From: a bacterium
GTDB taxonomy: Bacteria; Actinomycetota; Acidimicrobiia; Acidimicrobiales; Bin134
Assembly (NCBI GenBank): GCA_028820035.1
Contig: JAPPKI010000048.1
Coordinates: 1-14,077, forward strand
Reading direction: 5' to 3'
DNA: 14,077 bases
Under the pieces are notes generated by a model, which saw only the letters and a program-made list of their open reading frames with translations, did no database searches and was not told where the DNA came from. Positions 3 to 14,077 of this stretch are shown here, piece by piece (positions within the stretch are counted from its first letter, which is position 1; each line of letters begins with the position of its first letter). The position numbers were made by a program, and so were the translations under genes.

Positions 3-1676
3 GCTGGGCTCTCCATAGGTGTCGGCGTGCAGGGCGTCTTGCTCGCCCTTGCCCCGACGGTGTTGACCATGGCGCTGTTCACGCAGGCTGCGGGCTTGGA
101 AGACGACTATGCGGCCTGGTCGGTTTTGGCGGCCGTCTTGATCAGCGGGATCGTCACTGTCCTTCAGGCCGGTCGTCTGGGGCCGATCGGCGGAGGCCAT
201 GTGTTGATTGCCGGGGCGGCGACCAGCTTCGTCGGCATCGCCATCATGGCTGTGGACCGGGCCGGGCCAGAAACGCTGGCCACATTGGTGCTCCTGTCGG
301 CGTGCTTCCAGTTTGCCCTGTCCCGGTGGCTTCCCCGGTTGCACCGGATCATCACGCCAACGGTGTCTGGGGTGGTCCTCATGCTCATCGCTGTAGGGGT
401 CATGCAGATTGCAGTGGGGAAGCTGGAGTTGGACCCCGACGGCGCCCCCGACTATGCCGAGCCCCTAGTGGTCGTGGTGACGCTGGCGGTTGCCGCGGCT
501 CTGAGCTTGCGGGCCACGCGATTGCTCCGTTTGTGGTCGCCGCTTCTTGGTGTCCTCACGGGCTCTGTCGTCGCGGCCCTATTCGGGCTCTACCGCGGTC
601 AGGGTGTGAACGACGCCTCATGGGTCGGCCTGCCTGATCCAGAAATTCCGGGATTCGACTTCTCTCCCAGCGCAGAGTTCTGGTCGCTGTTGCCGATGTT
701 CCTGATTGTGTCCATTTCGGGATTGATCAAGACAACCGGCGGCAGCGTGGTGGTGCAGGGGGTCTCCACACGGGAGCCGAAGTTGCCCGACTACCGGCTG
801 GTGCAAGGCGCGGTCAACGCCAACGGCGTGGGCTCAGTGCTTGCCGGCTTCGCAGGCACGCTGCCTACCGGCGCATTCGACGCCACGTCGGCATCCCTCG
901 TCGACTTCACCCGAGTCGCCTCCCGCCAGGTGGGATACGCCATCGGAATCATGCTGGTGGTTTTGACGTTGCTGCCGAAGGCGATGGCCCTGCTGCTCAC
1001 TGTTCCCGGCGCGGTAACCAGCGCGTACCTGCTCTTGATCATGGGCCAGCTCTTTGTGGCGGGCATGCGCACGGTCATCCAAGACGGCCTTCAACCCCAC
1101 AAGGCCCTAACTGTCGCCGTCTCGCTGGCGATTGGCATCGGCCTGCAGGGCGAGAACATCGTCGCCGACCTCCTCGGCGAGACGTGGGGGCCGCTGCTTG
1201 GCAATGGCCTGACGGTGGGCACCATCGTCGCGATCCTCATGACGTCGTTCATCGAGCTGAGCGGACGGCGGCGGATGCGGCTCAAAACCGAGCTGGACAT
1301 GGATGCACTGCCAAAGATCGATGCGTTCCTCCAAGAGGTGGCGGCGAGCATCGGCTGGAACCAGGTTTCGGCCAACCGGCTCCGCCTGGTCGGAGAAGAG
1401 GTACTGACCAGCCTGGTGGAGGCGAAGAACGGCGAGAGGCAGTCGCGGCTTGCCGTCGCCGCCCGGCCCAGCGCCAGCGTGGTGGAGCTGCAATTCATCG
1501 CCTCGCTGGAAGAGGCCAATATCGAGGATGAGCTCGTCTACCTGAGCGAGCGGGCAGAAGCCCAGGAGGAGCGCTTGGTTTCGCTCCGGCTGTTGCAGCA
1601 CTTCGCATCGGTGGTACGTCACCGCAAATACAGCGGTATGGACATCGTCACGGTCGAGGTGGAGGGCTCGCGCTAG
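3..1676 (+). CDS. NCS2-type xanthine/uracil permease with C-terminal RsbW/HATPase-like domain (5' truncated)
   Basis: The reading frame is open to the left edge, so the true start lies upstream; the GTG at 27 is internal. About 557 residues are visible. Roughly the first 430 are a polytopic membrane protein: repeated hydrophobic segments, a glycine-rich GPIGGG turn, the ITPTVSGVV segment (NCS2 families have PPxVxG here), and the block TRVASRQVGYAIG followed by LLPKAMALL, typical of the uracil/xanthine permease family. It should therefore be an inner-membrane nucleobase or similar solute transporter; the substrate cannot be told. From about nt 1300 the protein becomes soluble. FLQEVAASIGW, then RLRLVGEEVLTSLVE, and a final RLLQHFASVVRHRKYSG segment resemble the helices and strands of anti-sigma/histidine-kinase-type ATPase domains, but no clear ATP-binding Asn or glycine-rich box is seen. 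The next gene starts 11 bases downstream, suggesting cotranscription. Family is fairly sure; the C-terminal assignment is tentative. Confidence 0.8.
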   Translation, partial: AGLSIGVGVQGVLLALAPTVLTMALFTQAAGLEDDYAAWSVLAAVLISGIVTVLQAGRLGPIGGGHVLIAGAATSFVGIAIMAVDRAGPETLATLVLLSACFQFALSRWLPRLHRIITPTVSGVVLMLIAVGVMQIAVGKLELDPDGAPDYAEPLVVVVTLAVAAALSLRATRLLRLWSPLLGVLTGSVVAALFGLYRGQGVNDASWVGLPDPEIPGFDFSPSAEFWSLLPMFLIVSISGLIKTTGGSVVVQGVSTREPKLPDYRLVQGAVNANGVGSVLAGFAGTLPTGAFDATSASLVDFTRVASRQVGYAIGIMLVVLTLLPKAMALLLTVPGAVTSAYLLLIMGQLFVAGMRTVIQDGLQPHKALTVAVSLAIGIGLQGENIVADLLGETWGPLLGNGLTVGTIVAILMTSFIELSGRRRMRLKTELDMDALPKIDAFLQEVAASIGWNQVSANRLRLVGEEVLTSLVEAKNGERQSRLAVAARPSASVVELQFIASLEEANIEDELVYLSERAEAQEERLVSLRLLQHFASVVRHRKYSGMDIVTVEVEGSR

Positions 1677-1687
1677 CGTCCCCATCG

Positions 1688-3394
1688 ATGGGCCAAACAG
1701 AAGTCGGCCTCGACCGAGACGCCTACGACGCTGCGCTGGCCGCCGACCTGCAGGTCAACACCCAACTGTCCACGTGGGAGATGTTGTGGCGGACCGCCCA
1801 GCAAGTGCCCGACAACGCCGCCATCATCACCGGCGACACCCACATCAGCTATCGGGAGCTGGCCGAGCAGGCCCTGCGGTCCGCCGCCGCACTGGCCGAA
1901 TTGGGCGTGGCCAAGGGCAGCCGGGTGGCGTTTGTGTTCCATCCCAGCCCCGACTGGGCGGTGCTGCACTACGCGCTAGGCCGTTTGGGAGCCATTGGGG
2001 TGCCCATCAACACCTCGTACATGGCCGCTGAGCTGGAGCACCTGTTCACCCTGGCCCAGCCCGAGCTGCTGATCACCGTGGACCGGTTCCGGGATGTGGA
2101 CATGGCGGGACGTCTGTCGCCGGAGGCGGCACGGTTCGACAGCATTGCCGAGACCGTGGTGCTGCCAGTGGACGACGAAGGGTGGGTAACCTCGTCTTCG
2201 GAACGGGATCGGGTGTTCGGCCCCGATGGCGGAGCTGCCCTGGGGCTGGCCAGCCCAGCGGAGGGCGATGATCCGGCCTACATCATCTTCACGTCGGGCT
2301 CCACCGCTGCTCCCAAACCAGCGCTGATCACCCATCGGGGCATGGTGGGGGCGGCCACCGGCTTGCAGCACGCCCTCGGCCTGGTGCCCGAAGACCGGTT
2401 TGTGGCCTCGAATCCTGTGTTCCATACCGGCGGCATCGTGTGGAACCTGACCATGCCCCATCTGGTGGGGATGACCTCGTGTTTGGTGGGGGTGTACGAA
2501 ACCGGCAAAGTGCTGCGGGAGATGGAGCGGTCGAAGATCACCGTGATGGGTGCGTTCGACACCAAGCTGACCATGATGCGCAACGCCCCCGAGTACCACA
2601 CCGTGGACCGCAGCTCGGTGCGCAAGTGCAATGTGGGGGCCACCGGCAGCTTCCTGCGCAGCGTGCTCGGTGATTGGAACTGGGAGACGGTGGCCCAGGT
2701 GTACGGCTCCACCGAGTCGGGCGGGCTGGGGTCGATCACCCCCCGGTACGAGACCGACCCCAGAGTGCGCTACGACGCCAACGGCCGGCCCATGCCTGGT
2801 ATGGAGTTCGTGATCAAAGACCTTGACACCGGCCAGCGGTGCGCCCCTGACGAGCCAGGAGAGATCTGCTTTCGGGGGTGGGGCACGTTCATTGAGTACG
2901 TAGGGATGCCTGAGGCCACGGCAGATGCGTTTGACGAGGAGGGGTTCTTCCACTCCGGCGACTACGGCTTCATGGACGAGGCCGGGAACTTGTATTTCCG
3001 GGGCCGCTACAAGCTGATGATCAAGACCGGCGGGGAGAACGTGTCGGAGCGGGAGGTGGAGATCTTCTGCGAGGACAATTTGGAAGCGGTGAAGTTCGCC
3101 ATCGTGGTGGGGGTGCCCGACCCGCTGTGGGGAGAGGCGGTGGTGGCATTCGTGGAGTTGCACGACGGAGCCAAAGAGACCTCCGACAACCTGGTGGAAG
3201 CATGCCGGGGCCATATCGCCAACTTCAAGATCCCCAAGCGGTTCTTCGTGGTGGAAGAGGAGGACTGGCCGCTGCTGGACTCCGGTCGGCCTGATCGCCA
3301 CGAACTGCGGACTCGGGCCGCGGCCCTAATGGGGACTGAAGGCGAGACGCGCTTACGCTTTGGGGATGGCGCAGGAGGGTCTCAACCGGGCTGA
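1688..3394 (+). CDS. AMP-dependent acyl-CoA synthetase/ligase family protein, A10 Lys replaced by Arg
   Basis: 568 residues, the usual length for acyl-CoA synthetases. These activate a carboxylic acid as acyl-AMP, then transfer it to CoA. Motifs appear in the expected order: the ATP-binding loop TSGSTAAPK (residues 202-210), the aromatic motif YGSTE (339-343), the ribose-binding SGD (Asp425), the hinge region GRYKLMIKTGGENVSEREVE (from 439), and a C-terminal lid ending IPKRFFVV. The last motif, normally PxTxxGK with the Lys that drives adenylation, reads LLDSGRPDR here, so the expected Lys is Arg534. Overall resemblance is to medium/long-chain fatty-acyl-CoA synthetases. The ATG at 1688 has only a weak ribosome site. 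It sits 11 bases after the permease and overlaps the next gene, which leads into the men operon. A role as MenE (o-succinylbenzoyl-CoA ligase) is possible from context, but the length and motifs do not favour it. Confidence 0.88.
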   Translation: MGQTEVGLDRDAYDAALAADLQVNTQLSTWEMLWRTAQQVPDNAAIITGDTHISYRELAEQALRSAAALAELGVAKGSRVAFVFHPSPDWAVLHYALGRLGAIGVPINTSYMAAELEHLFTLAQPELLITVDRFRDVDMAGRLSPEAARFDSIAETVVLPVDDEGWVTSSSERDRVFGPDGGAALGLASPAEGDDPAYIIFTSGSTAAPKPALITHRGMVGAATGLQHALGLVPEDRFVASNPVFHTGGIVWNLTMPHLVGMTSCLVGVYETGKVLREMERSKITVMGAFDTKLTMMRNAPEYHTVDRSSVRKCNVGATGSFLRSVLGDWNWETVAQVYGSTESGGLGSITPRYETDPRVRYDANGRPMPGMEFVIKDLDTGQRCAPDEPGEICFRGWGTFIEYVGMPEATADAFDEEGFFHSGDYGFMDEAGNLYFRGRYKLMIKTGGENVSEREVEIFCEDNLEAVKFAIVVGVPDPLWGEAVVAFVELHDGAKETSDNLVEACRGHIANFKIPKRFFVVEEEDWPLLDSGRPDRHELRTRAAALMGTEGETRLRFGDGAGGSQPG

Positions 3395-3782
3395 GTTGAT
3401 CGAAGCCTCGGGTCTGGCTGCTAAGCAGGTGGATTTGGCCATCGACGCTGGCTTGGTGATCCCTGACGATTTCGGGCGATTCAAAGAGGATGCGGTCACG
3501 ATGCTGCAAGCCGGTGCCGCCCTCGTCGCTGTCGGGGTGAGCGTTCCCGACTTGGCCGCGTTGGCGGTTCGCCACGCCCGAAACGTGGAGGCGGTGGTGG
3601 ATGAAGCGGTGGACCTGTTCTTGGATGCCATGGGCACCGACGAATTGACCAGCAGCGACTTGGAGAATCTGACTCCTTTGGTGGAGGCACTAGTGCCCCA
3701 AGTGGTGGCCCTTGTGGGTGAGCACTTCCGCCGCACCCTGCTCAGCAGAGCGGCAGTCCGGTTGGCGGAGCGGGTGAAATGA
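3366..3782 (+). CDS. Small MerR-like helix-turn-helix protein at the head of the men genes
   Basis: 138 residues from ATG 3366; a TTG two codons upstream is less likely. Residues about 5-45 read as a degenerate winged helix-turn-helix of the MerR type: NRAELIEASGLAAKQVDLAID, then a GLV turn and a GRF-x-EDA segment where MerR proteins have the wing. The rest is an alpha-helical stretch rich in Ala and Val, ending LVGEHFRRTLLSRAAVRLAE. I recall similar helical tails in small actinobacterial regulators, but I cannot name a family with certainty. It overlaps the acyl-CoA synthetase by 29 bases, and its TGA overlaps the menF ATG as ATGA, so it is translated with the operon. It may regulate the operon, or respond to an acyl-CoA or quinone precursor; this is inference from position only. 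Confidence 0.72.
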   Translation: MAQEGLNRAELIEASGLAAKQVDLAIDAGLVIPDDFGRFKEDAVTMLQAGAALVAVGVSVPDLAALAVRHARNVEAVVDEAVDLFLDAMGTDELTSSDLENLTPLVEALVPQVVALVGEHFRRTLLSRAAVRLAERVK

Positions 3783-4903
3783 CGCCTCTAGAGGAATTCT
3801 CCTCGTGGACCGGCGACGACCGGGTGTATTGGCGGGCGCCGGGCGTAGACGCCATAGCCGGGTTGGGAGCAGCGCGGGCTGTTGAAGTAGATGGTCGTTG
3901 GCGGTTTGAGGCCGCCGCGGCGGCCGCTGCTGAGTTGCTGGCCGACGGGGAAGTCGCATTTGCTGGTTTCGGTTTTGCCGATCGATGCGGAACAGGGGCA
4001 TGGGACGGTTACCCAAGCGGGCGATTGGTGGTACCGGAACGGGTTGTTCGGGGGTCGACACACGGGGCAGGACACACAGACCTCACCAACGCCTTGCGGG
4101 TTGAAGATGGAACTCGGGCCACCTATCGGGACGCGGTGAAGCAGGCTGCCGACGCCATTGATGCCGGGGAGCTGGGCAAGGTGGTGGTGGCCCGAGAGGT
4201 GGAGGCGGTGGGCGGTATCGACCCCGCGGTGGTGCTGGCTCGGCTGTCGAACCGTTTCGAGTCGTGCGCAGTGTTCGGATTCGGCCGGGGGACGTCTTGT
4301 TTTGTGGGCGCCAGCCCCGAGGTTCTGGCGGAACTCAACGGCGATGTGGTCACCACCTATGCAGTGGCAGGCACCGCTCCTCGAGGGGCCACTCCAGCCG
4401 ACGACGCCGCAATCGCCGAGCGGTTGGCGGCCGATCCCAAAGAGCAGGCCGAGCACCACTATGTGGTGGAATACCTCCGCACCCGCCTAGCCCTAGCCGG
4501 AGTGGCGCTAGATCCTACTGGCGATACCGAAGTTCGGACTCTGCCTGGCGTTCACCACCTGGCCACTACGGTCAGCGGGCGGATCGCCCCTGAGCCTGGC
4601 ATGGCGCTGCGGCTGGCGGGCGCCTTGCATCCCACACCGGCGGTGGGAGGCACACCGACCACGTTCGCCCAGCAGTGGATCGCCGAGCATGAAGGACTTG
4701 ACCGAGGGTGGTACGCCGGGCCGGTGGGGTGGATCGACCACCGGGGGTGCGGCTCGTTCTATGTGGCCTTGCGATCGGCGTTGATCGGCCCCAGCGGGAT
4801 GCGCCTGTGTGCAGGCGCGGGCATCGTGGCCGGGTCCGACCCCGAGCAGGAATTGGTCGAGACCGACATCAAGTTGGCCGCGATTTTGGATGTGGTTACA
4901 TGA
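3779..4903 (+). CDS. menF: Isochorismate synthase MenF
   Basis: 374 residues of the chorismate-binding (ADCS/MST) family; converts chorismate to isochorismate, the first committed step of menaquinone synthesis, in the cytoplasm with Mg2+. Family signatures are all present: LGKVVVARE (Lys134, position of the general base), GASPEVLAEL (around Glu181), AGTAPRG (197-203), DPKEQAEHHYVVEYLR (219-234), HHLATTVSGRI, LHPTPAVGGTP (283-293), GWYAGPVGW, and the closing GAGIVAGSDPEQELVETDIK with metal-binding Glu residues. The first 100 residues are variable, as usual. The start ATG lies in an ATGA overlap with the preceding gene, and its own stop forms an ATGA overlap with menD. A salicylate or enterobactin-type EntC role is excluded mainly by the men neighbours. 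Confidence 0.95.
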   Translation: MTPLEEFSSWTGDDRVYWRAPGVDAIAGLGAARAVEVDGRWRFEAAAAAAAELLADGEVAFAGFGFADRCGTGAWDGYPSGRLVVPERVVRGSTHGAGHTDLTNALRVEDGTRATYRDAVKQAADAIDAGELGKVVVAREVEAVGGIDPAVVLARLSNRFESCAVFGFGRGTSCFVGASPEVLAELNGDVVTTYAVAGTAPRGATPADDAAIAERLAADPKEQAEHHYVVEYLRTRLALAGVALDPTGDTEVRTLPGVHHLATTVSGRIAPEPGMALRLAGALHPTPAVGGTPTTFAQQWIAEHEGLDRGWYAGPVGWIDHRGCGSFYVALRSALIGPSGMRLCAGAGIVAGSDPEQELVETDIKLAAILDVVT

Positions 4904-9074: not shown

Positions 9075-10298
9075 ATGCCATCCGACGGGGTGGGGCAATA
9101 CCGTCGGGATGTGGGACTCCGGCGGTCGCAGCTTGTGGTGGTGTGGTTGATCGGGGCGGCGGTGATCCTTCCCAACGCCACAATCGCTCCGGCCATCCCC
9201 GACATCGCCTCCGCCTTCGGCATTTCCGACCAGACCTCGGTGTTCATCTTGATGACCGCCCACGCCCCTGGCTTGTTCATGGCCTCGGTGATCGGGGTGG
9301 CCGCCGATCGCTACGGACGCCGCCGGATCATCGTCCCCTGCCTGTTGGTGTTCGGCCTGGGCGGATTGGTCATTATGGCCTCCACCAACCTGGCCATGCT
9401 GCTGACCTTCCGGTTCATTCAGGGACTGGGCTCATCGGGATTCTTGAGCCTGGCTCTGGTGATCATCGGGGACAACTACGAGGGAGTGGAGCGCACCCGG
9501 ATCATCGGCCAGAACGCCCTGTCCATGAATTTGAGTGTGGCCTTGTTGCCTGCAGCCGGGGGCGTGCTCACCGAGCTGTTCGGCTGGCGGGGCCCATTCG
9601 CCTTACATGCCTTCACCATTTTGTTGGCCTTGTTCGCGGCGACCCTGCTGCCCCCCGATGAGCGGCGGACCCCCGAGCCGCTTCGCCACCAACTCCGCCA
9701 GGCCCGCCCCCACCTCATGCAGCGTGAGGTTGGAGTGCTACTGCTGGTGGCGCCATTCACATTCCTGGTTTTCTTCGCCGTGGGAATCACCACCATGCCC
9801 ATCCACCTGGAGAACGAGTTCGGAGCCTCGGCCGGGATTCGGGGCGTGGTCTTGTCTCTGCCTGCGGTGTCGGCCGGATTGATTGCGCTCAGCATGGGAC
9901 GCATAGCCGGCCGCCACTCCATCTCGACCATGGTGCGGGCTGGCTACATCGGGTTCATCATCTGCCTGACCGGAATGGCGCTGTCGCCCACGTTGGCCGT
10001 GATCATCGCCCCCATGCTGGTGTTGGGAGCCGCCGATCAGCTCGTGGTCGTTCCCCTGCAAAGCCGGGCCGCCTCGCTGGCCCCCGAACAACACCGAGCC
10101 GTGATGGTGGCCGCCTGGGGCACCGCCATCCGCATCGGCCAGGTCAGCGGCCCCGCCGTTGTCGCCGGCCTGCTCGCCGTGGGCGACACCCGCTTAGTCC
10201 TCTGGGCCGGCGCCGCCCTCTCCGCCGCCATGCTCATCTTCGTCACCCTCGTCCGCCCCTACATCGACCGCGACCCCGCATTCAGGTCAGCGCCATGA
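9075..10298 (+). CDS. MFS transporter, probable drug/metabolite exporter
   Basis: 407 residues from ATG 9075 with about 12 hydrophobic segments. The major-facilitator motif A is clear in the loop after the second helix: GVAADRYGRRRIIVP. The first helix, VVWLIGAAVILPNATIAPAIPDIASAFG, resembles the start of drug:H+ antiporter-type MFS proteins (PALPxIAxxF). Mid-protein the loop PPDERRTPEPLRHQLRQARP separates the two six-helix halves. The substrate cannot be inferred. The start is uncertain: GTG 9111 has a G-rich stretch upstream and would leave more room from the divergent SRPBCC gene, whose start at 9065 is only about 9 bases from ATG 9075. The 3' end overlaps the convergent nucleotidyltransferase gene by 17 bases. 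Confidence 0.87.
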   Translation: MPSDGVGQYRRDVGLRRSQLVVVWLIGAAVILPNATIAPAIPDIASAFGISDQTSVFILMTAHAPGLFMASVIGVAADRYGRRRIIVPCLLVFGLGGLVIMASTNLAMLLTFRFIQGLGSSGFLSLALVIIGDNYEGVERTRIIGQNALSMNLSVALLPAAGGVLTELFGWRGPFALHAFTILLALFAATLLPPDERRTPEPLRHQLRQARPHLMQREVGVLLLVAPFTFLVFFAVGITTMPIHLENEFGASAGIRGVVLSLPAVSAGLIALSMGRIAGRHSISTMVRAGYIGFIICLTGMALSPTLAVIIAPMLVLGAADQLVVVPLQSRAASLAPEQHRAVMVAAWGTAIRIGQVSGPAVVAGLLAVGDTRLVLWAGAALSAAMLIFVTLVRPYIDRDPAFRSAP

Positions 10299-11100
10299 GC
10301 AGATCAGACACCAGAGCCGTCATTGATGCAGAGACGAAGTCGGGATCAGCACCAGGTCCTGCGGCTCGGACTGCCATCTGAACGCCGACAGCATCAGCAC
10401 TGCCGAAAAGCGGGGTGAGATTCTGGATCGCCTCAGTTGTGACAGATGCGCTCAGTTCATCGTCCAGGAGCTTCTTCAGACGTTCAGCAAGGTCAGCGGT
10501 TTCTGTGGCTTGAAGCAGCCGGAGCACATCGAGTGAGTCCTTGTGGCTTAGGCGATTGAGCTCGTCAGCCCGCTCTGCAATCTTGTGAATCTTGGCCACC
10601 AGCAGCGCGCCGGGTCCAGCCACATTCATGGTGACGGAGCGATTGTCTGTGAGGTCAAGTGCGGAGATGATCATCGGTTGATGATCCAGGAGCGCCGCTT
10701 CCAGCCCCTTGGCGCGTCTTGCCACTCTCTTGCCATGGGCCAGGAGGTCAGCACTGCGTCTGTGTCTCTTGGAGCCGGCCAGAGCTTCGGGAACCATCAA
10801 GTCCACAGCGACGCCATTGGAATTGATCCAACTGCCAGGATTGTCTCCAGCTCTGAAGCCGCCTTTTGTCAATAGGTCGGCCAACAGGGGTGAGTCGCTC
10901 AGATCATTTGGGTTGATGCTGAAATCAGCGTCTGTGGTGTATTGAGCGACAGTGTCGAATAGGTCAGCTTCTCCAGTGTGGAGATAGATGGCCTGAGCCC
11001 CGACGAGGACGATGACGTCGAGATGGTCAAATAGTGCGTTGGCTGCGTCAAGGAGCGCAGAACGGGCATCGATGTAGATCGGGTCAGGAGCGCCAGGCAT
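10282..11100 (-). CDS. Nucleotidyltransferase-fold protein, putative type IV (AbiEii-like) toxin
   Basis: 272 residues. An early motif LVGAQAIYLHTG (32-43) followed by YTTDADFSINP (54-64) matches the nucleotidyltransferase pattern of AbiEii/AbiGii-type proteins (hGGxA...T.DiD). The candidate metal Asp residues are Asp57 and Asp59, with a third, Asp100, in VAVDLMVPEAL. This retains all three acidic positions of an active fold. The central part includes LLVAKIHKIAERADE and SHKDSLDVLRLLQ, a Lys/Asp-rich helical segment typical of this group. In AbiE systems the toxin transfers nucleotides to a target and blocks growth; that activity is inferred here. It overlaps the upstream HTH gene by 17 bases, so the two are one unit. 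The order regulator first, toxin second matches AbiEi-AbiEii. An ordinary nucleotidyltransferase-fold enzyme is the alternative. Confidence 0.72.
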   Translation of the reverse strand: MPGAPDPIYIDARSALLDAANALFDHLDVIVLVGAQAIYLHTGEADLFDTVAQYTTDADFSINPNDLSDSPLLADLLTKGGFRAGDNPGSWINSNGVAVDLMVPEALAGSKRHRRSADLLAHGKRVARRAKGLEAALLDHQPMIISALDLTDNRSVTMNVAGPGALLVAKIHKIAERADELNRLSHKDSLDVLRLLQATETADLAERLKKLLDDELSASVTTEAIQNLTPLFGSADAVGVQMAVRAAGPGADPDFVSASMTALVSDLLMALT

Positions 11101-12163
11101 CTTCGTTCTCCTGCATCCATCGCAGCATCTCTTCGCCTTGTGAAGGCTCTCGTCCTGGGCCTGTCAGCAAGTCGACGCAGAGCTGACTAGGGGCGACGCA
11201 TCTCAGCCCTCCTCGCCAGATAGTTCTGTCGAACACCACGGGATCGAATGGTTCGAGCAGGATGACATTTGCACTTGTCTCGATCTCCCGGAGTTTGAGT
11301 CGATCAGCGAATCTAGCGGCGTCTTCGACATACAGCGTGGCCGTCTTGGCGGGTGCGATTGGATCAAATGACTGCGCTGCAAAGGCACCGGTTGCGGCAT
11401 ACACGGGATCTGCCTCGTCAAGCTTCTCCAAAACCGCAGGAAGTCCCCGGGGTTCGAGAAAAGTCATTGGAGTGTTCGAGGTCGATTGGGCGTAGTCCGC
11501 TGCCCATCGGCGAATCGCGGCCTCCCAATCAACGGTCAAAACTGGACCTCGGGTTTCGCGGGTGACTATTCCCTCCCGATCCAGTAGCTCAACGACACGA
11601 GAGAGTGTGGGCGCGGAAGCTCCGCTGGTAGCTGCAAGCTCTCGGATCCCGAACGGGGGAGTGTGGTCGATGATGGCGCGAACGGCGCGAGCCGCCCCTC
11701 GGCCTTTGAGCGATTGGAGGTCGCTGTCTTGAGGCCAAGGGTCTCGATCGACACCCGTGGATGATATGAACAGCCCTGGTTGAGACACCTCGATCCGCAC
11801 GTTGCCAGCCATGTCGATGTATCCGACGCCAGCGCTGTCGAGAATCTCCCGTGAGCGGGGTGAGAGATACGCGGCTGCAACCACCGGAACTGCGTCAGAA
11901 AGATCGCCGGTGCAGTACATCGCAAGCCGATCAAGTACCCGAGGCACAACACGGGGCTCAATTGTCCTCTTGGTCTCGATTGCCAGTTCAGCGCGCTCCC
12001 CATTGGGTGCAAGGACTTCTATGAGCAGATCAAGTTGGGCATCGCCTGCTCGTACTCGTTGGTTTGCTTCTCTTATGGACCACCCCGTCGGCAAAGTCGA
12101 AGCTAGGGTTCGCTCAGCGTTGCGGATGATGTCGATTTCGCGGGGCATCTCTTGTGTCGGCAC
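11084..12163 (-). CDS. Winged-HTH protein with PD-(D/E)xK-like N-terminus, putative AbiEi-type antitoxin
   Basis: 359 residues from GTG 12163, preceded by the strong ribosome site GGAAGGAGGA with a 7-base spacer, which fixes the start. Residues about 30-130 look like a nuclease-type fold: Asp45 in AQLDLLIEV and, 17 residues on, the E-x-K of LAIETKR (Glu63/Lys65), then AGVGYIDMAGNVRIEV. Residues about 165-230 are a winged helix-turn-helix (FGIRELAATSGASAPTLSRV, then LLDREGIVTRE). The C-terminal part includes WRGGLRCVAPSQLCVDLLTGPGR, resembling the non-DNA-binding half of AbiEi-like antitoxins. It probably autorepresses the operon through the half-site array just upstream and neutralises the downstream nucleotidyltransferase; both are inferred. 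The GC content is lower than in the men region, consistent with transfer. Antitoxin assignment is moderate. Confidence 0.7.
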   Translation of the reverse strand: MPTQEMPREIDIIRNAERTLASTLPTGWSIREANQRVRAGDAQLDLLIEVLAPNGERAELAIETKRTIEPRVVPRVLDRLAMYCTGDLSDAVPVVAAAYLSPRSREILDSAGVGYIDMAGNVRIEVSQPGLFISSTGVDRDPWPQDSDLQSLKGRGAARAVRAIIDHTPPFGIRELAATSGASAPTLSRVVELLDREGIVTRETRGPVLTVDWEAAIRRWAADYAQSTSNTPMTFLEPRGLPAVLEKLDEADPVYAATGAFAAQSFDPIAPAKTATLYVEDAARFADRLKLREIETSANVILLEPFDPVVFDRTIWRGGLRCVAPSQLCVDLLTGPGREPSQGEEMLRWMQENEDAWRS

Positions 12164-12630: not shown

Positions 12631-12878
12631 GCGAACTCCTCAAGGCAGAATCCAACACACTTGTCGCAGTGGGCGAGAAGACCTTCGCAAAGGCGTAACC
12701 CCGGCCGTTTGCCGAAGCAGGGACGGTTCCGGGGTCTAGGCCAGCAATTGTACGAGGTGCCGAAGGATGGGGCAACGACGTTGAGCCATATCCGCCTGTT
12801 GTCGTTTGGCAGAAAGCCGACTTGGCTGTCAGCCAGCACGAGCCCGTTGGACTCTCTTGTAGGCGCCGGTCATATTGA
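12627..12878 (+). pseudogene. Interrupted reading frame coupled to the small gene (possible decayed gene)
   Basis: GTG 12627 overlaps the preceding stop as GTGA. The frame runs for 23 codons (SELLKAESNTLVAVGEKTFAKA), meets TAA at 12696-12698, then continues open for 59 codons to TGA at 12876-12878. The part after the stop contains PAIVRGAEGWGNDVEPYPP and VVVWQKADLAVSQHEP, which read like real protein. This suggests a gene of roughly 80 residues broken by one nonsense change, or a real 23-residue peptide followed by chance sequence. The far end overlaps the convergent metalloprotease gene by 50 bases. No family is recognised. Confidence 0.3.
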
Positions 12879-13389
12879 GGCGCCAAGTCAACATCTGTTT
12901 GCTGACTCCCCACCGCGTTTGCGCCTCCTGCCGTGTAAATCGGCCACGCGCAACAGCGAGCGCCATGTCTTCAGTAACGAGCATGACTCCAGCTAGCCAG
13001 TCAGCCTCATCTTCTTTGGTGGGATCCCAAATTCTGCAGCCGGTCACTCCGTCAAGTGCAGGAGTTGGCTCGTGGAGAAGGAGGCCATGACTCAATTCAT
13101 GGGCCAGACTGCTGTTTCGTCTTGCTTTGGAGTGGAAATCGTTGAAAACGATGACCCTGTGGCGGCCGTCAAAGACGGTGCAGGCGGAGAAGACATCTGG
13201 TTCTTCGGAGAGGAGGTAGGAGGCGCCGACGCACTGGTCTTCCAAGGCACTAAGCGGGAGAGTGGGGATGGCGAGGTGTTGGGCGAGGGTGTGCGGGTCG
13301 AGTCGGTCAAATGGGCCGAGACCCAATTCGCCCCGTATTTCGCTTGCTAGATCCGCGGCCTCCGTCTTGAAGCCTCGTCGAAGTTGCAC
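12829..13389 (-). CDS. ImmA/IrrE-family metallo-endopeptidase
   Basis: 186 residues from GTG 13389. The zinc motif HExxH is present as LAHELSHGLLLH, and a downstream KEDEADWLAGVMLV segment supplies the expected third ligand, the Glu of the DEADWLA helix. The N-terminus (GFKTEAADLASEIRGELGLGPFDRLDPHTLAQHL) is the helical region usual before the protease core. The C-terminal EAQTRWGVSKQMLTWRLN resembles a helix-turn-helix-like tail seen in this family. Family members cleave cognate XRE repressors or other regulators in response to stress or induction. It lies 3 bases after the stop of the XRE gene, so they form an operon, and the XRE protein is its most likely substrate (inference). Confidence 0.9.
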   Translation of the reverse strand: MQLRRGFKTEAADLASEIRGELGLGPFDRLDPHTLAQHLAIPTLPLSALEDQCVGASYLLSEEPDVFSACTVFDGRHRVIVFNDFHSKARRNSSLAHELSHGLLLHEPTPALDGVTGCRIWDPTKEDEADWLAGVMLVTEDMALAVARGRFTRQEAQTRWGVSKQMLTWRLNMTGAYKRVQRARAG

Positions 13390-13392
13390 CAG

Positions 13393-13752
13393 TTACTCCT
13401 GCGTTCGTAGCTGTTCGTAGGTCACCTGGATGACTTGGTCGAGGGCACTGGCTGCTTCTGGGGTGAGGTTCTTGTCTGATCGCAAGTAGGTAGAAATCAC
13501 CGCTAATGGTTCAGGGTTTGGCAGGGCAGAGTCAGATCGCACAAAGTCGTTTGTCTGTAGTCCTGACCAGGTGACTAGGGCTGCAAGACCATCAACATCG
13601 GGGCGCTTGCCCTGTGCCATCCGGGTGAGGGTTGAAGCGCTGACACCTGACTCAGCTGCCACCTGCTTCCAGTTCAGGCTTCTTGTTTGTCGGGTCAGGT
13701 CGAGCGCATCAAAGAACGCCTCGATATCGAACCACCCAATTTTCTCGGTCAC
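13393..13752 (-). CDS. XRE-family helix-turn-helix transcriptional regulator
   Basis: 119 residues from GTG 13752, chosen because GGAGG lies 5 bases upstream and the protein then begins at the conserved FDIEAFFDALD region. An ATG at 13788 in the same frame is the alternative and would add 12 residues. The DNA-binding domain is clear: LNWKQVAAESGVSASTLTRMAQGKRPDVDGLAALVTW, with the recognition helix at SASTLTRMAQG. The C-terminal part (EPLAVISTYLRSD and ALDQVIQVTYEQLR) is helical and probably mediates dimer formation. It is cotranscribed with the ImmA/IrrE peptidase and divergent from the ubiquitin-like gene, so it most likely represses both directions through the palindromic intergenic region. 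Confidence 0.85.
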   Translation of the reverse strand: MTEKIGWFDIEAFFDALDLTRQTRSLNWKQVAAESGVSASTLTRMAQGKRPDVDGLAALVTWSGLQTNDFVRSDSALPNPEPLAVISTYLRSDKNLTPEAASALDQVIQVTYEQLRTQE

Positions 13753-13786
13753 GGCCCCCTCCGGTGATTGCGATAGTGAAATCGAC

Positions 13787-13822
13787 ATGCTATCCTGCAA
13801 TTGCTCAATAGCAACTGAGCAT
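13787..13822. promoter_or_regulatory. Overlapping palindromes between the XRE and ubiquitin-like genes (candidate operator)
   Basis: Several dyads overlap here: GCAATTGC (13797-13804, perfect), TTGCT-CAAT-AGCAA (13801-13814), GCTCA/TGAGC (13803-13807 and 13816-13820), and ATGCT/AGCAT (13787-13791 and 13818-13822). The region lies between the divergent starts. TTGCTC (13801-13806) with TGAATA 17 bases downstream (13824-13829) is a weak plus-strand promoter candidate for the ubiquitin-like gene. The binding factor is inferred to be the neighbouring XRE protein. Confidence 0.45.
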
Positions 13823-13854
13823 CTGAATAACAATCACGAAAGTGAGGATAGCTG

Positions 13855-14077
13855 ATGACTAGGCCAGAGACCGGGAAGGGTGGAGACAAGCCAAGGGGGC
13901 CCGTGCATATCACGGTCAATCGTCAAGACATCGAAATCGACGGACCACGGGACAGCGGGCTGGAGAACAAGGAGGCTGCGATTGAGCAGGGTCTGGCCAT
14001 CGATCTGGGTTTTCAGTTGGCGATGGAGACGCCGGAAGGGGAGCAGAAGATCATTGGCGACAACGATGTTGTTGAGG
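13855..14077 (+). CDS. Ubiquitin-like beta-grasp protein, multiubiquitin-family (3' truncated)
   Basis: ATG 13855, with a GAGG ribosome site 7 bases upstream; the first 74 residues are visible before the window ends. After a polar, Gly/Lys-rich leader (about 16 residues) comes a beta-grasp-like unit: strand 1 VHITVNRQDIEID, a turn GPRDSG, helix LENKEAAIEQG, strands IDLGFQLAMETPEG and EQKIIGDNDVV. The order hairpin, helix, strands ending in a GDNDVV-type acidic turn is that of bacterial multiubiquitin-family (Multi_ubiq) proteins. In related gene sets these are encoded with E1-like (ThiF), E2-like and JAB-type proteins. Here the partners, any further ubiquitin repeats and the C-terminal residue chemistry lie outside the window. 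A different beta-grasp family is the main alternative. Confidence 0.65.
   Translation, partial: MTRPETGKGGDKPRGPVHITVNRQDIEIDGPRDSGLENKEAAIEQGLAIDLGFQLAMETPEGEQKIIGDNDVVE

What the first reader, a model, noticed from the sequence alone, without database searches (positions are those of the whole stretch)
13855..14077. Likely start of a bacterial ubiquitin-like conjugation operon at the window edge
The 74 visible residues have a ubiquitin-like beta-grasp pattern (VHITVNRQDIEID, then the helix LENKEAAIEQG, then IDLGFQLAMETPEG and the acidic turn GDNDVV) as in multiubiquitin-family proteins. Known families of this type sit with ThiF/E1, E2 and JAB genes. The gene directly adjoins a putative toxin-antitoxin module and a repressor-protease pair, so the region may be a defence island.
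Basis: partly seen in the sequence, partly recalled or inferred. Interest (0 to 1): 0.85.

Follow-up and report, generated by a model that had tools for sequence, protein, structure and literature searches.

The report
Serine-tailed bacterial ubiquitin-like tagging operon
The edge of this stretch holds the start of a bacterial ubiquitin-like gene; its likely partner enzymes lie at the start of another contig of the same genome, and together they would form a protein-tagging system, probably switched by a neighbouring repressor and protease, of a group whose close relatives' tags mostly end in a fixed four-residue tail instead of the usual glycine.

Summary
The finding holds. Window 13855-14076 encodes the first 74 residues of a Multi_ubiq (PF14452) protein; the nearest homologue is 96 aa and 82% identical. 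The contig ends there. The operon very likely resumes on contig C165, after a gap of about 230 bp: the end of an E2-like gene, then a JAMM-E1 fusion matching Citrobacter BubCD. This is the Bub (bacterial ubiquitination-like) kind, Iyer 2006 row 6e.

The divergent HTH-M78 pair (12829-13752) is CapH/CapP-like. That link is already published, as toxin-antitoxin (2016) and as DNA-damage control (2026).

Not found in the passages I could read:
(1) In this subgroup the modifier ends in DDNS, not Gly: 14 of 16 fetched loci and all 120 listed profile hits (a biased list). Loci ending DD[N/D][S/A] lack DUF6527 (0 of 8, against 31 of 46 others).
(2) The E2 site is an invariant Ser; 63 of 120 listed E2s have no cysteine, which excludes a thioester in those.
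(3) This HTH family travels with ATTGC/GCAAT repeats, confirmed in six held-out loci.

The papers defining Bub (Ye 2026, Gong 2025) were not held. Antiphage function is unproven.

The parts
13855..14076 (+). First 74 codons of a Multi_ubiq / BubA-like ubiquitin-like modifier; runs off the contig end
13753..13854 (.). Divergent promoter region with ATTGC/GCAAT repeats (13767, 13797, 13800), TAGCAA at 13809, and an 8-bp inverted repeat GCTATCCT / AGGATAGC (13789-13796 / 13845-13852). If the HTH gene starts at the ATG 13788 instead of the GTG 13752, the repeat at 13767 lies inside it.
   Evidence: controls; binding by the repressor is inferred
13393..13752 (-). CapH-like HTH repressor, 119 aa if it starts at the GTG 13752 (131 aa from the ATG 13788)
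   Evidence: HTH_3, 26.9 bits; 46-67% identical to HTH proteins of 8 related loci
12829..13389 (-). CapP-like M78 (ImmA/IrrE) metallopeptidase, 186 aa, HELSH at residues 97-101
   Evidence: PF06114, 6.7e-13; PADLOC capP, 5.2e-6; 60% identical to the neighbour in L016

Best explanation
The window ends inside a ubiquitin-like modifier gene (Multi_ubiq, BubA-like) that is likely the first gene of a Bub-type conjugation operon, whose predicted E2 (BubB-like) and JAMM-E1 fusion (BubCD-like) lie at the start of contig C165 of the same genome and which would attach the modifier to cell proteins when the adjacent CapH/CapP-like pair lifts its repression. Proposed order of events. (1) Resting: the HTH repressor sits on the ATTGC/GCAAT repeats between the divergent genes and keeps both units low (inferred from the repeats). 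(2) Trigger: ssDNA from phage attack or DNA damage activates the M78 protease, which cuts the repressor (inferred from CapH+CapP). (3) Maturation: in the window's lineage the modifier likely carries six extra residues after DDNS, as its three closest relatives do, and the JAMM domain would trim them; most other fetched relatives are encoded already ending in DDNS. (4) Activation and transfer: the ThiF-like domain adenylates the tail and passes it to the E2, most likely on the invariant Ser as an ester, since no cysteine column is conserved in the E2s. (5) The modifier is placed on targets, and the same JAMM domain can remove it. Shown here: gene content, order in relatives, conserved residues, repeats. 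Inferred: every chemical and regulatory step.
For: Modifier. E1 in the own genome: C165:196-1617, 72% identical to the L002 E1, matching PDB Citrobacter BubCD along residues 10-416 at E=2.6e-21. E2 in the own genome: C165:3-211 in two frames. Copy number in G000: one modifier, E2 only on C165, one full-length E1 (a second hit on C71 covers 182-324 at 1.1e-4). The matching bases in L002 and L016 lie 230 and 229 apart. JAMM residues E31, H96, H98, S107, D110 are kept in 22 of 22 aligned E1s. The E2 model of L002 (pLDDT 94) has one PDB match at E<=0.001, Citrobacter BubB, TM 0.73. Tail DDNS in 14 of 16 fetched loci and in the 120 listed of 2123 hits. Repeats: 24 copies in 8 regions with this HTH family, 1 in 13 other regions, 0 of 500 shuffles reaching the best 5-mer count; six held-out loci against 55, Mann-Whitney p=4.5e-6.
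Against: No read seen here joins the two contigs. The E2 start and the modifier tail fall in the gap. The E2 fragment on C165 is in two frames, so it may be broken or mis-assembled. The tail statistic is biased: the query profile contained DDNS and only the best 120 of 2123 hits were listed; in the survey 9 of 61 loci end DD[ND][SA]. A terminal Ser as such does not go with loss of DUF6527: of 50 other loci with an E1, 23 end in Ser and 17 of those have DUF6527. Within the nine DD-tailed survey loci only 4 have this HTH family and 5 an M78 hit, so the switch is not fixed to the subgroup. In L015, where the HTH lies elsewhere, only 1 repeat lies within 110 bp of the modifier. Occurrence is sporadic: 3 of the 197 relatives searched besides the own genome.
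Confidence: 0.85

Rival explanations
1. The HTH-M78 pair is a toxin-antitoxin module that stabilises a neighbouring ubiquitin-like cassette by addiction, rather than its regulator.
For: Published reading for Synechocystis pSYSX slr6056-slr6057; that paper finds 70% of PF14452 proteins adjacent to DUF955 loci (PMC4963859, passages). In L022 an AbiEi-family antitoxin-domain gene lies beside the HTH.
Against: No M78 was detected beside the HTH in L004-L006 (tblastn with the window M78), L124 and L156 (profile), and none is annotated in L022 (that gene table is incomplete). The HTH family shares operator-like repeats at the modifier promoter. CapH+CapP is described as a DNA-damage regulator of adjacent operons including Bub (PMC13373217, passages). 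Toxicity was not tested here.
Confidence: 0.1
2. The modifier and the C165 enzymes belong to two separate incomplete operons of the same genome, or C165 is a binning contaminant.
For: The genome is a fragmented bin (560 contigs, 68.9% complete, 2.06% contamination) and the junction is not sequenced.
Against: Both contigs break at points that lie about 230 bases apart in intact relatives. No second modifier or E2 was found, though the bin is incomplete. The E1 is 72% identical to that of L002, whose modifier is 57% identical to P0001.
Confidence: 0.08
3. The system acts in sulfur-carrier chemistry (ThiS/MoaD-like) rather than protein conjugation.
For: ThiF-fold E1 with two CxxC pairs; MoeB and ThiF are among its PDB matches.
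Against: No C-terminal Gly-Gly in close relatives. The best PDB matches are Bub E1, E2 and multi-ubiquitin proteins, and an E2 and a JAMM domain are present.
Confidence: 0.03

Closest known systems
Bub (bacterial ubiquitination-like) operons; Citrobacter BubA, BubB, BubCD (PDB 9d59, 9ea4, 9ea8, 9eae, 9eav)
   Same: Multi_ubiq modifier, UBC-fold E2 with a Ser-Arg motif at the aligned site, JAMM domain fused in front of the ThiF-like E1
   Different: The modifier is predicted to have one beta-grasp domain, and close relatives end in DDNS; the Citrobacter BubA construct ends in VNNG. No DUF6527 gene follows; the next gene on C165 is HsdM. The E1 is only about 24.5% identical to the E. coli plasmid relative
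Iyer et al. 2006 operon type 6e (polyUbl, inactive E2-like, JAB-E1, metal-binding protein)
   Same: Modifier, E2-like and JAB-E1 genes (PMC1779556, passages)
   Different: Metal-binding protein absent here (that this protein is DUF6527 is my recollection); the E2 was called inactive there, while its Ser is invariant in the sequences aligned here
CapH+CapP regulators
   Same: HTH and M78 genes next to the operon; the M78 matches PADLOC capP. Its authors report CapW or CapH+CapP at 219 of 544 Bub operons (passage)
   Different: Weak match only (24 bits); RmrA models match nearly as well; no cleavage or ssDNA data for this pair
Synechocystis pSYSX slr6056-slr6057 with its multiubiquitin cassette
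   Same: Same divergent layout; HTH 57% identical; shares the ATTGC/GCAAT repeats
   Different: Has DUF6527, and its modifier ends in TTTEG

Membership tests
Bub / Iyer type 6e | Multi_ubiq modifier | tested here: met
   (below cut-off)
Bub / Iyer type 6e | UBC-fold E2 next to the modifier | tested here: inconclusive
   Own genome has only the C-terminal part, in two frames, on C165; the homologue in L002 is predicted to fold like BubB
Bub / Iyer type 6e | JAMM domain fused to ThiF-like E1 | tested here: met
   (contig C165; linkage to the window inferred)
Bub / Iyer type 6e | DUF6527 / metal-binding gene in the operon (a metal-binding protein is listed in row 6e; whether later Bub papers require it could not be read) | tested here: not met
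   C165 has HsdM and an IS481-like element after the E1; 0 of 8 DD[ND][SA]-tailed survey loci with 3 kb or more downstream have it. I therefore file it as a variant with the Bub core, not as a full type 6e member
Bub (recalled: ester intermediates on Ser) | Conserved Ser, no conserved Cys, in the E2 | tested here: met
   Ser in 16 of 16 aligned and in 120 of 120 listed (115 by pattern, 5 by eye); 63 of 120 have no Cys
CapH+CapP | Adjacent HTH and M78 protease with HExxH | tested here: met
CapH+CapP | ssDNA-activated cleavage of the repressor | not testable with these tools
   needs purified proteins
Classical ubiquitin pathway | Modifier with C-terminal Gly | tested here: inconclusive
   Own tail lies in the gap; the 3 closest relatives have DDNS plus 6 residues ending R, L, R; 14 of 16 fetched loci end in DDNS
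Classical ubiquitin pathway | Catalytic Cys in the E2 | tested here: not met

The most novel reading that the evidence does not exclude
A widespread branch of bacterial ubiquitin-like conjugation in which the modifier's terminal glycine has been replaced by an invariant acidic Asp-Asp-Asn-Ser tail, carried through an all-ester, cysteine-free relay without the DUF6527 helper, and in the sponge-symbiont lineage made as a precursor with a six-residue cap that the JAMM domain must remove.
Probability: 0.45. Interest if true: 0.65.

Novelty: new variant of a known kind. Interest (0 to 1): 0.42.

Why it matters
Bub operons are a known but little-tested branch of the ubiquitin world. A subgroup whose tag ends in Ser after Asp-Asp-Asn, with an E2 that has no cysteine at all in about half of the listed members, would show that neither the Gly tail nor thioester chemistry is needed for a ubiquitin-like relay. 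The shared promoter repeats give a direct handle to test when the system is switched on.

Tried and rejected
Thioester chemistry in the E2: rejected for the 63 of 120 listed E2s without any Cys; open for the rest.

A viral origin: one scan of viral contigs had 29 pattern matches and no relative confirmed; PHROGs gave no match to P0001. Weak evidence only.

A simple rule 'Ser tail means no DUF6527': rejected, since 17 of 23 other Ser-ended loci have DUF6527. Only the DD[ND][SA] tail goes with its absence.

PDB sequence searches with the modifier profile, the L002 E2 and the window M78 gave no Bub or CapP match; the fold search found Bub for the first two. PADLOC has no hit for modifier or E2, but its E1-E2 models match the C165 E1 up to 2.5e-12 over the ThiF part; the fused JAMM and the BubCD match argue for Bub instead.

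Papers. Searches gave listings only (capped; e.g. 15 of 2,095, mostly surnames); in the passages read I saw nothing on a DDNS tail or DUF6527-less operons. Ye 2026 and Gong 2025 are not held, so 'not in print' is not claimed. One search listed 8 of 101 papers, none about this operon by title.

My errors: the window HTH was translated one base out of frame, so its identities there are void; redone. In one search the window region starts one base late; counts unaffected.

Full report
WHAT IS THERE. The window is contig C495 of a fragmented genome bin (2.71 Mb, 560 contigs, 68.9% complete); no base beyond 14077 was returned. At its right end an ORF starts at 13855 and runs off after 74 codons. 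Pfam gives Multi_ubiq at 17.2 bits over residues 18-73, under the curated cut-off of 24.5. Three full-length homologues of 96 aa exist, 82, 80 and 68% identical, all PF14452; one is from Candidatus Poriferisocius, class Acidimicrobiia. The host is therefore likely an acidimicrobial, probably sponge-associated, bacterium (inferred).

THE REST OF THE OPERON. Five relatives in genome contigs are titled Acidimicrobiaceae, Chloroflexi, Acidobacteria, Candidatus Palauibacter and Rhodothermales bins. In four of the five the modifier is followed by a small E2-like gene and a JAMM-ThiF fusion; the Chloroflexi one (L003) has a DUF6791-ThiF E1. Searching the own genome with the L002 genes found contig C165 (4200 bp): E2 pieces at 3-74 and 71-211 in two frames, and an E1 at 196-1617, 72% identical. 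In L002 and L016 the bases that match the end of C495 and the start of C165 lie 230 and 229 apart. The genome has one modifier, E2 only on C165 and one full-length E1. I take C495-gap-C165 as one operon: likely, not proven.

THE PARTS ARE BUB PARTS. The E1 matches PDB Citrobacter BubCD along 10-416 at 2.6e-21. JAMM residues are kept in 22 of 22 aligned E1s, while no Cys column is universal: the two CxxC pairs are in 19-20 of 22 and C305 in 16 of 22. The E2 (L002 with 52 relatives; pLDDT 94) has one PDB hit at E<=0.001, Citrobacter BubB, 1.2e-4, TM 0.73. By Pfam alone it is under the cut-off (18.1 against 25 bits for Prok-E2_E). The modifier model (P0001; pLDDT 77) best matches bacterial multi-ubiquitin proteins, weakly (5.4e-3, none at E<=0.001), with BubA(155-229) twelfth. 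Iyer et al. 2006 listed this operon kind as row 6e, with an 'inactive' E2 (PMC1779556, passages). PMC13373217 (passages) calls Bub operons putative immune pathways not yet shown to protect a host against phage.

TAIL AND CHEMISTRY. Of 16 fetched loci of this E2/E1 group or near it (L002, L004-L006, L015-L017, L020-L028), 14 modifiers end exactly in DDNS; L027 ends HHEDS and L017 GGSDS. The three 96-aa relatives have DDNS followed by six residues. A profile search gave 2123 proteins; all 120 listed end in DDNS. The profile held that tail, so this is not an unbiased rate. In five distant plasmid loci (L029-L033; L034 was fetched but not analysed), two modifiers end EG, one GGGV and two are fused to the E2; four of the five have DUF6527. 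In the fused E. coli case the Citrobacter BubA construct boundary is VNNG. For the E2, 1225 proteins were found; all 120 listed have Ser-Arg at the site (115 by pattern, 5 by eye), 63 have no Cys at all, and 6 carry the Pfam E2 model. In the 16-sequence alignment with distant forms the Ser is invariant, the Arg not. Ester transfer on Ser is the simplest reading; I recall that Ye 2026 reports ester intermediates but could not read it.

SURVEY. PF14452 was searched in 396, 350, 347 and 298 genomes around four centres: 12, 12, 17 and 18 genomes match. I fetched 61 places: the matches, less the already held L003 and L004 places and repeated domains of one gene, plus two. An E1 hit was found in 59 of 61, some of them weak. 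Nine end DD[ND][SA] (seven DDNS, one DDDS, one DDNA); all nine have E2 and E1, four this HTH family, five an M78 hit. With 3 kb or more downstream, DUF6527 is in 0 of 8 of these and in 31 of 46 others (Fisher p=0.0005, not corrected for relatedness). One of the eight, L107, is probably the plasmid of L025. Of the 50 others with an E1, 22 end in a Gly motif with or without further residues by my pattern; 23 end in Ser, and 17 of those have DUF6527, so Ser alone is not the mark.

REGULATOR. The window HTH is 46-67% identical to HTH proteins at L002, L004-L006, L015, L016, L022 and L033, and its M78 neighbour is 60% identical to that of L016. L002 has the M78 in two pieces about 2.6 kb apart with a stop; no M78 was detected in L004-L006. 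An M78 or HTH hit lies near 34 of 59 surveyed operons. The link is known: 70% of PF14452 proteins beside DUF955 loci, read as toxin-antitoxin (PMC4963859, passages); CapW or CapH+CapP at 219 of 544 Bub operons. What I add is a shared repeat: ATTGC/GCAAT occurs 24 times in 8 intergenic regions with this HTH family, 0 of 500 shuffles reach the best 5-mer count, and 13 regions with other or no such regulator hold 1. The motif was picked after looking. Held-out test: six surveyed loci with this HTH family (100 bits or more) have 5, 5, 2, 2, 5, 3 copies in 230 bp; the other 55 have 0 (37), 1 (15), 2 (2), 3 (1); p=4.5e-6. In L015, where the HTH lies 3' of the E1, one copy is near the modifier and one near the HTH. 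L114 has a distant E1 yet the same HTH family and five repeats, so the repeat seems to follow the regulator, not the E1.

NEIGHBOURHOOD. On C165 the E1 is followed by HsdM (N6_Mtase 2.5e-101) and an IS481-like integrase. None of the 20 listed same-genus genomes has the modifier, and 3 of 197 other relatives do: sporadic, likely mobile.

VERDICT. An operon with the Bub core, of a DUF6527-less, DDNS-tailed subgroup, with a CapH/CapP-like switch. The kind and its regulator are known; the tail, its link to missing DUF6527, the possible precursor cap and the operator-like repeat are the new points, subject to the unread Bub papers.

Noticed in passing
window 10282-12163 (-): Two overlapping genes (272 and 359 aa). 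No family match over a curated cut-off.
   Followed up: partly
L018 (C165) 3-211: The E2 reading frame changes near a run of G close to the contig start; assembly error or broken gene cannot be told apart.
   Followed up: partly
L018 (C165) 1550-4200: HsdM-type methyltransferase and IS481-like integrase right after the E1; the contig ends there.
   Followed up: partly
L004 7901-9481, L005 10536-12116, L006 12016-13617 (all -): Genes of about 530 aa, alike by eye at their starts, lie convergent to the E1 in three bins where the HTH has no detected M78; the Mesorhizobium locus L022 has a gene of like size and place (not compared). No Pfam match for the L005, L006 and L022 copies; none in PHROGs or PADLOC for L005. 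Candidate effector or regulator.
   Followed up: partly
L003, L114, L123: Multi_ubiq operons with a distant E1 (DUF6791-ThiF in L003) also carry HTH and M78 genes; L114 and L123 have the window's HTH family.
   Followed up: partly
L002 6234-9530: M78 partner split into two pieces about 2.6 kb apart with a stop, while the HTH beside it is open.
   Followed up: no
G572, G573, G576: Three bins carry two separate Multi_ubiq places each.
   Followed up: partly
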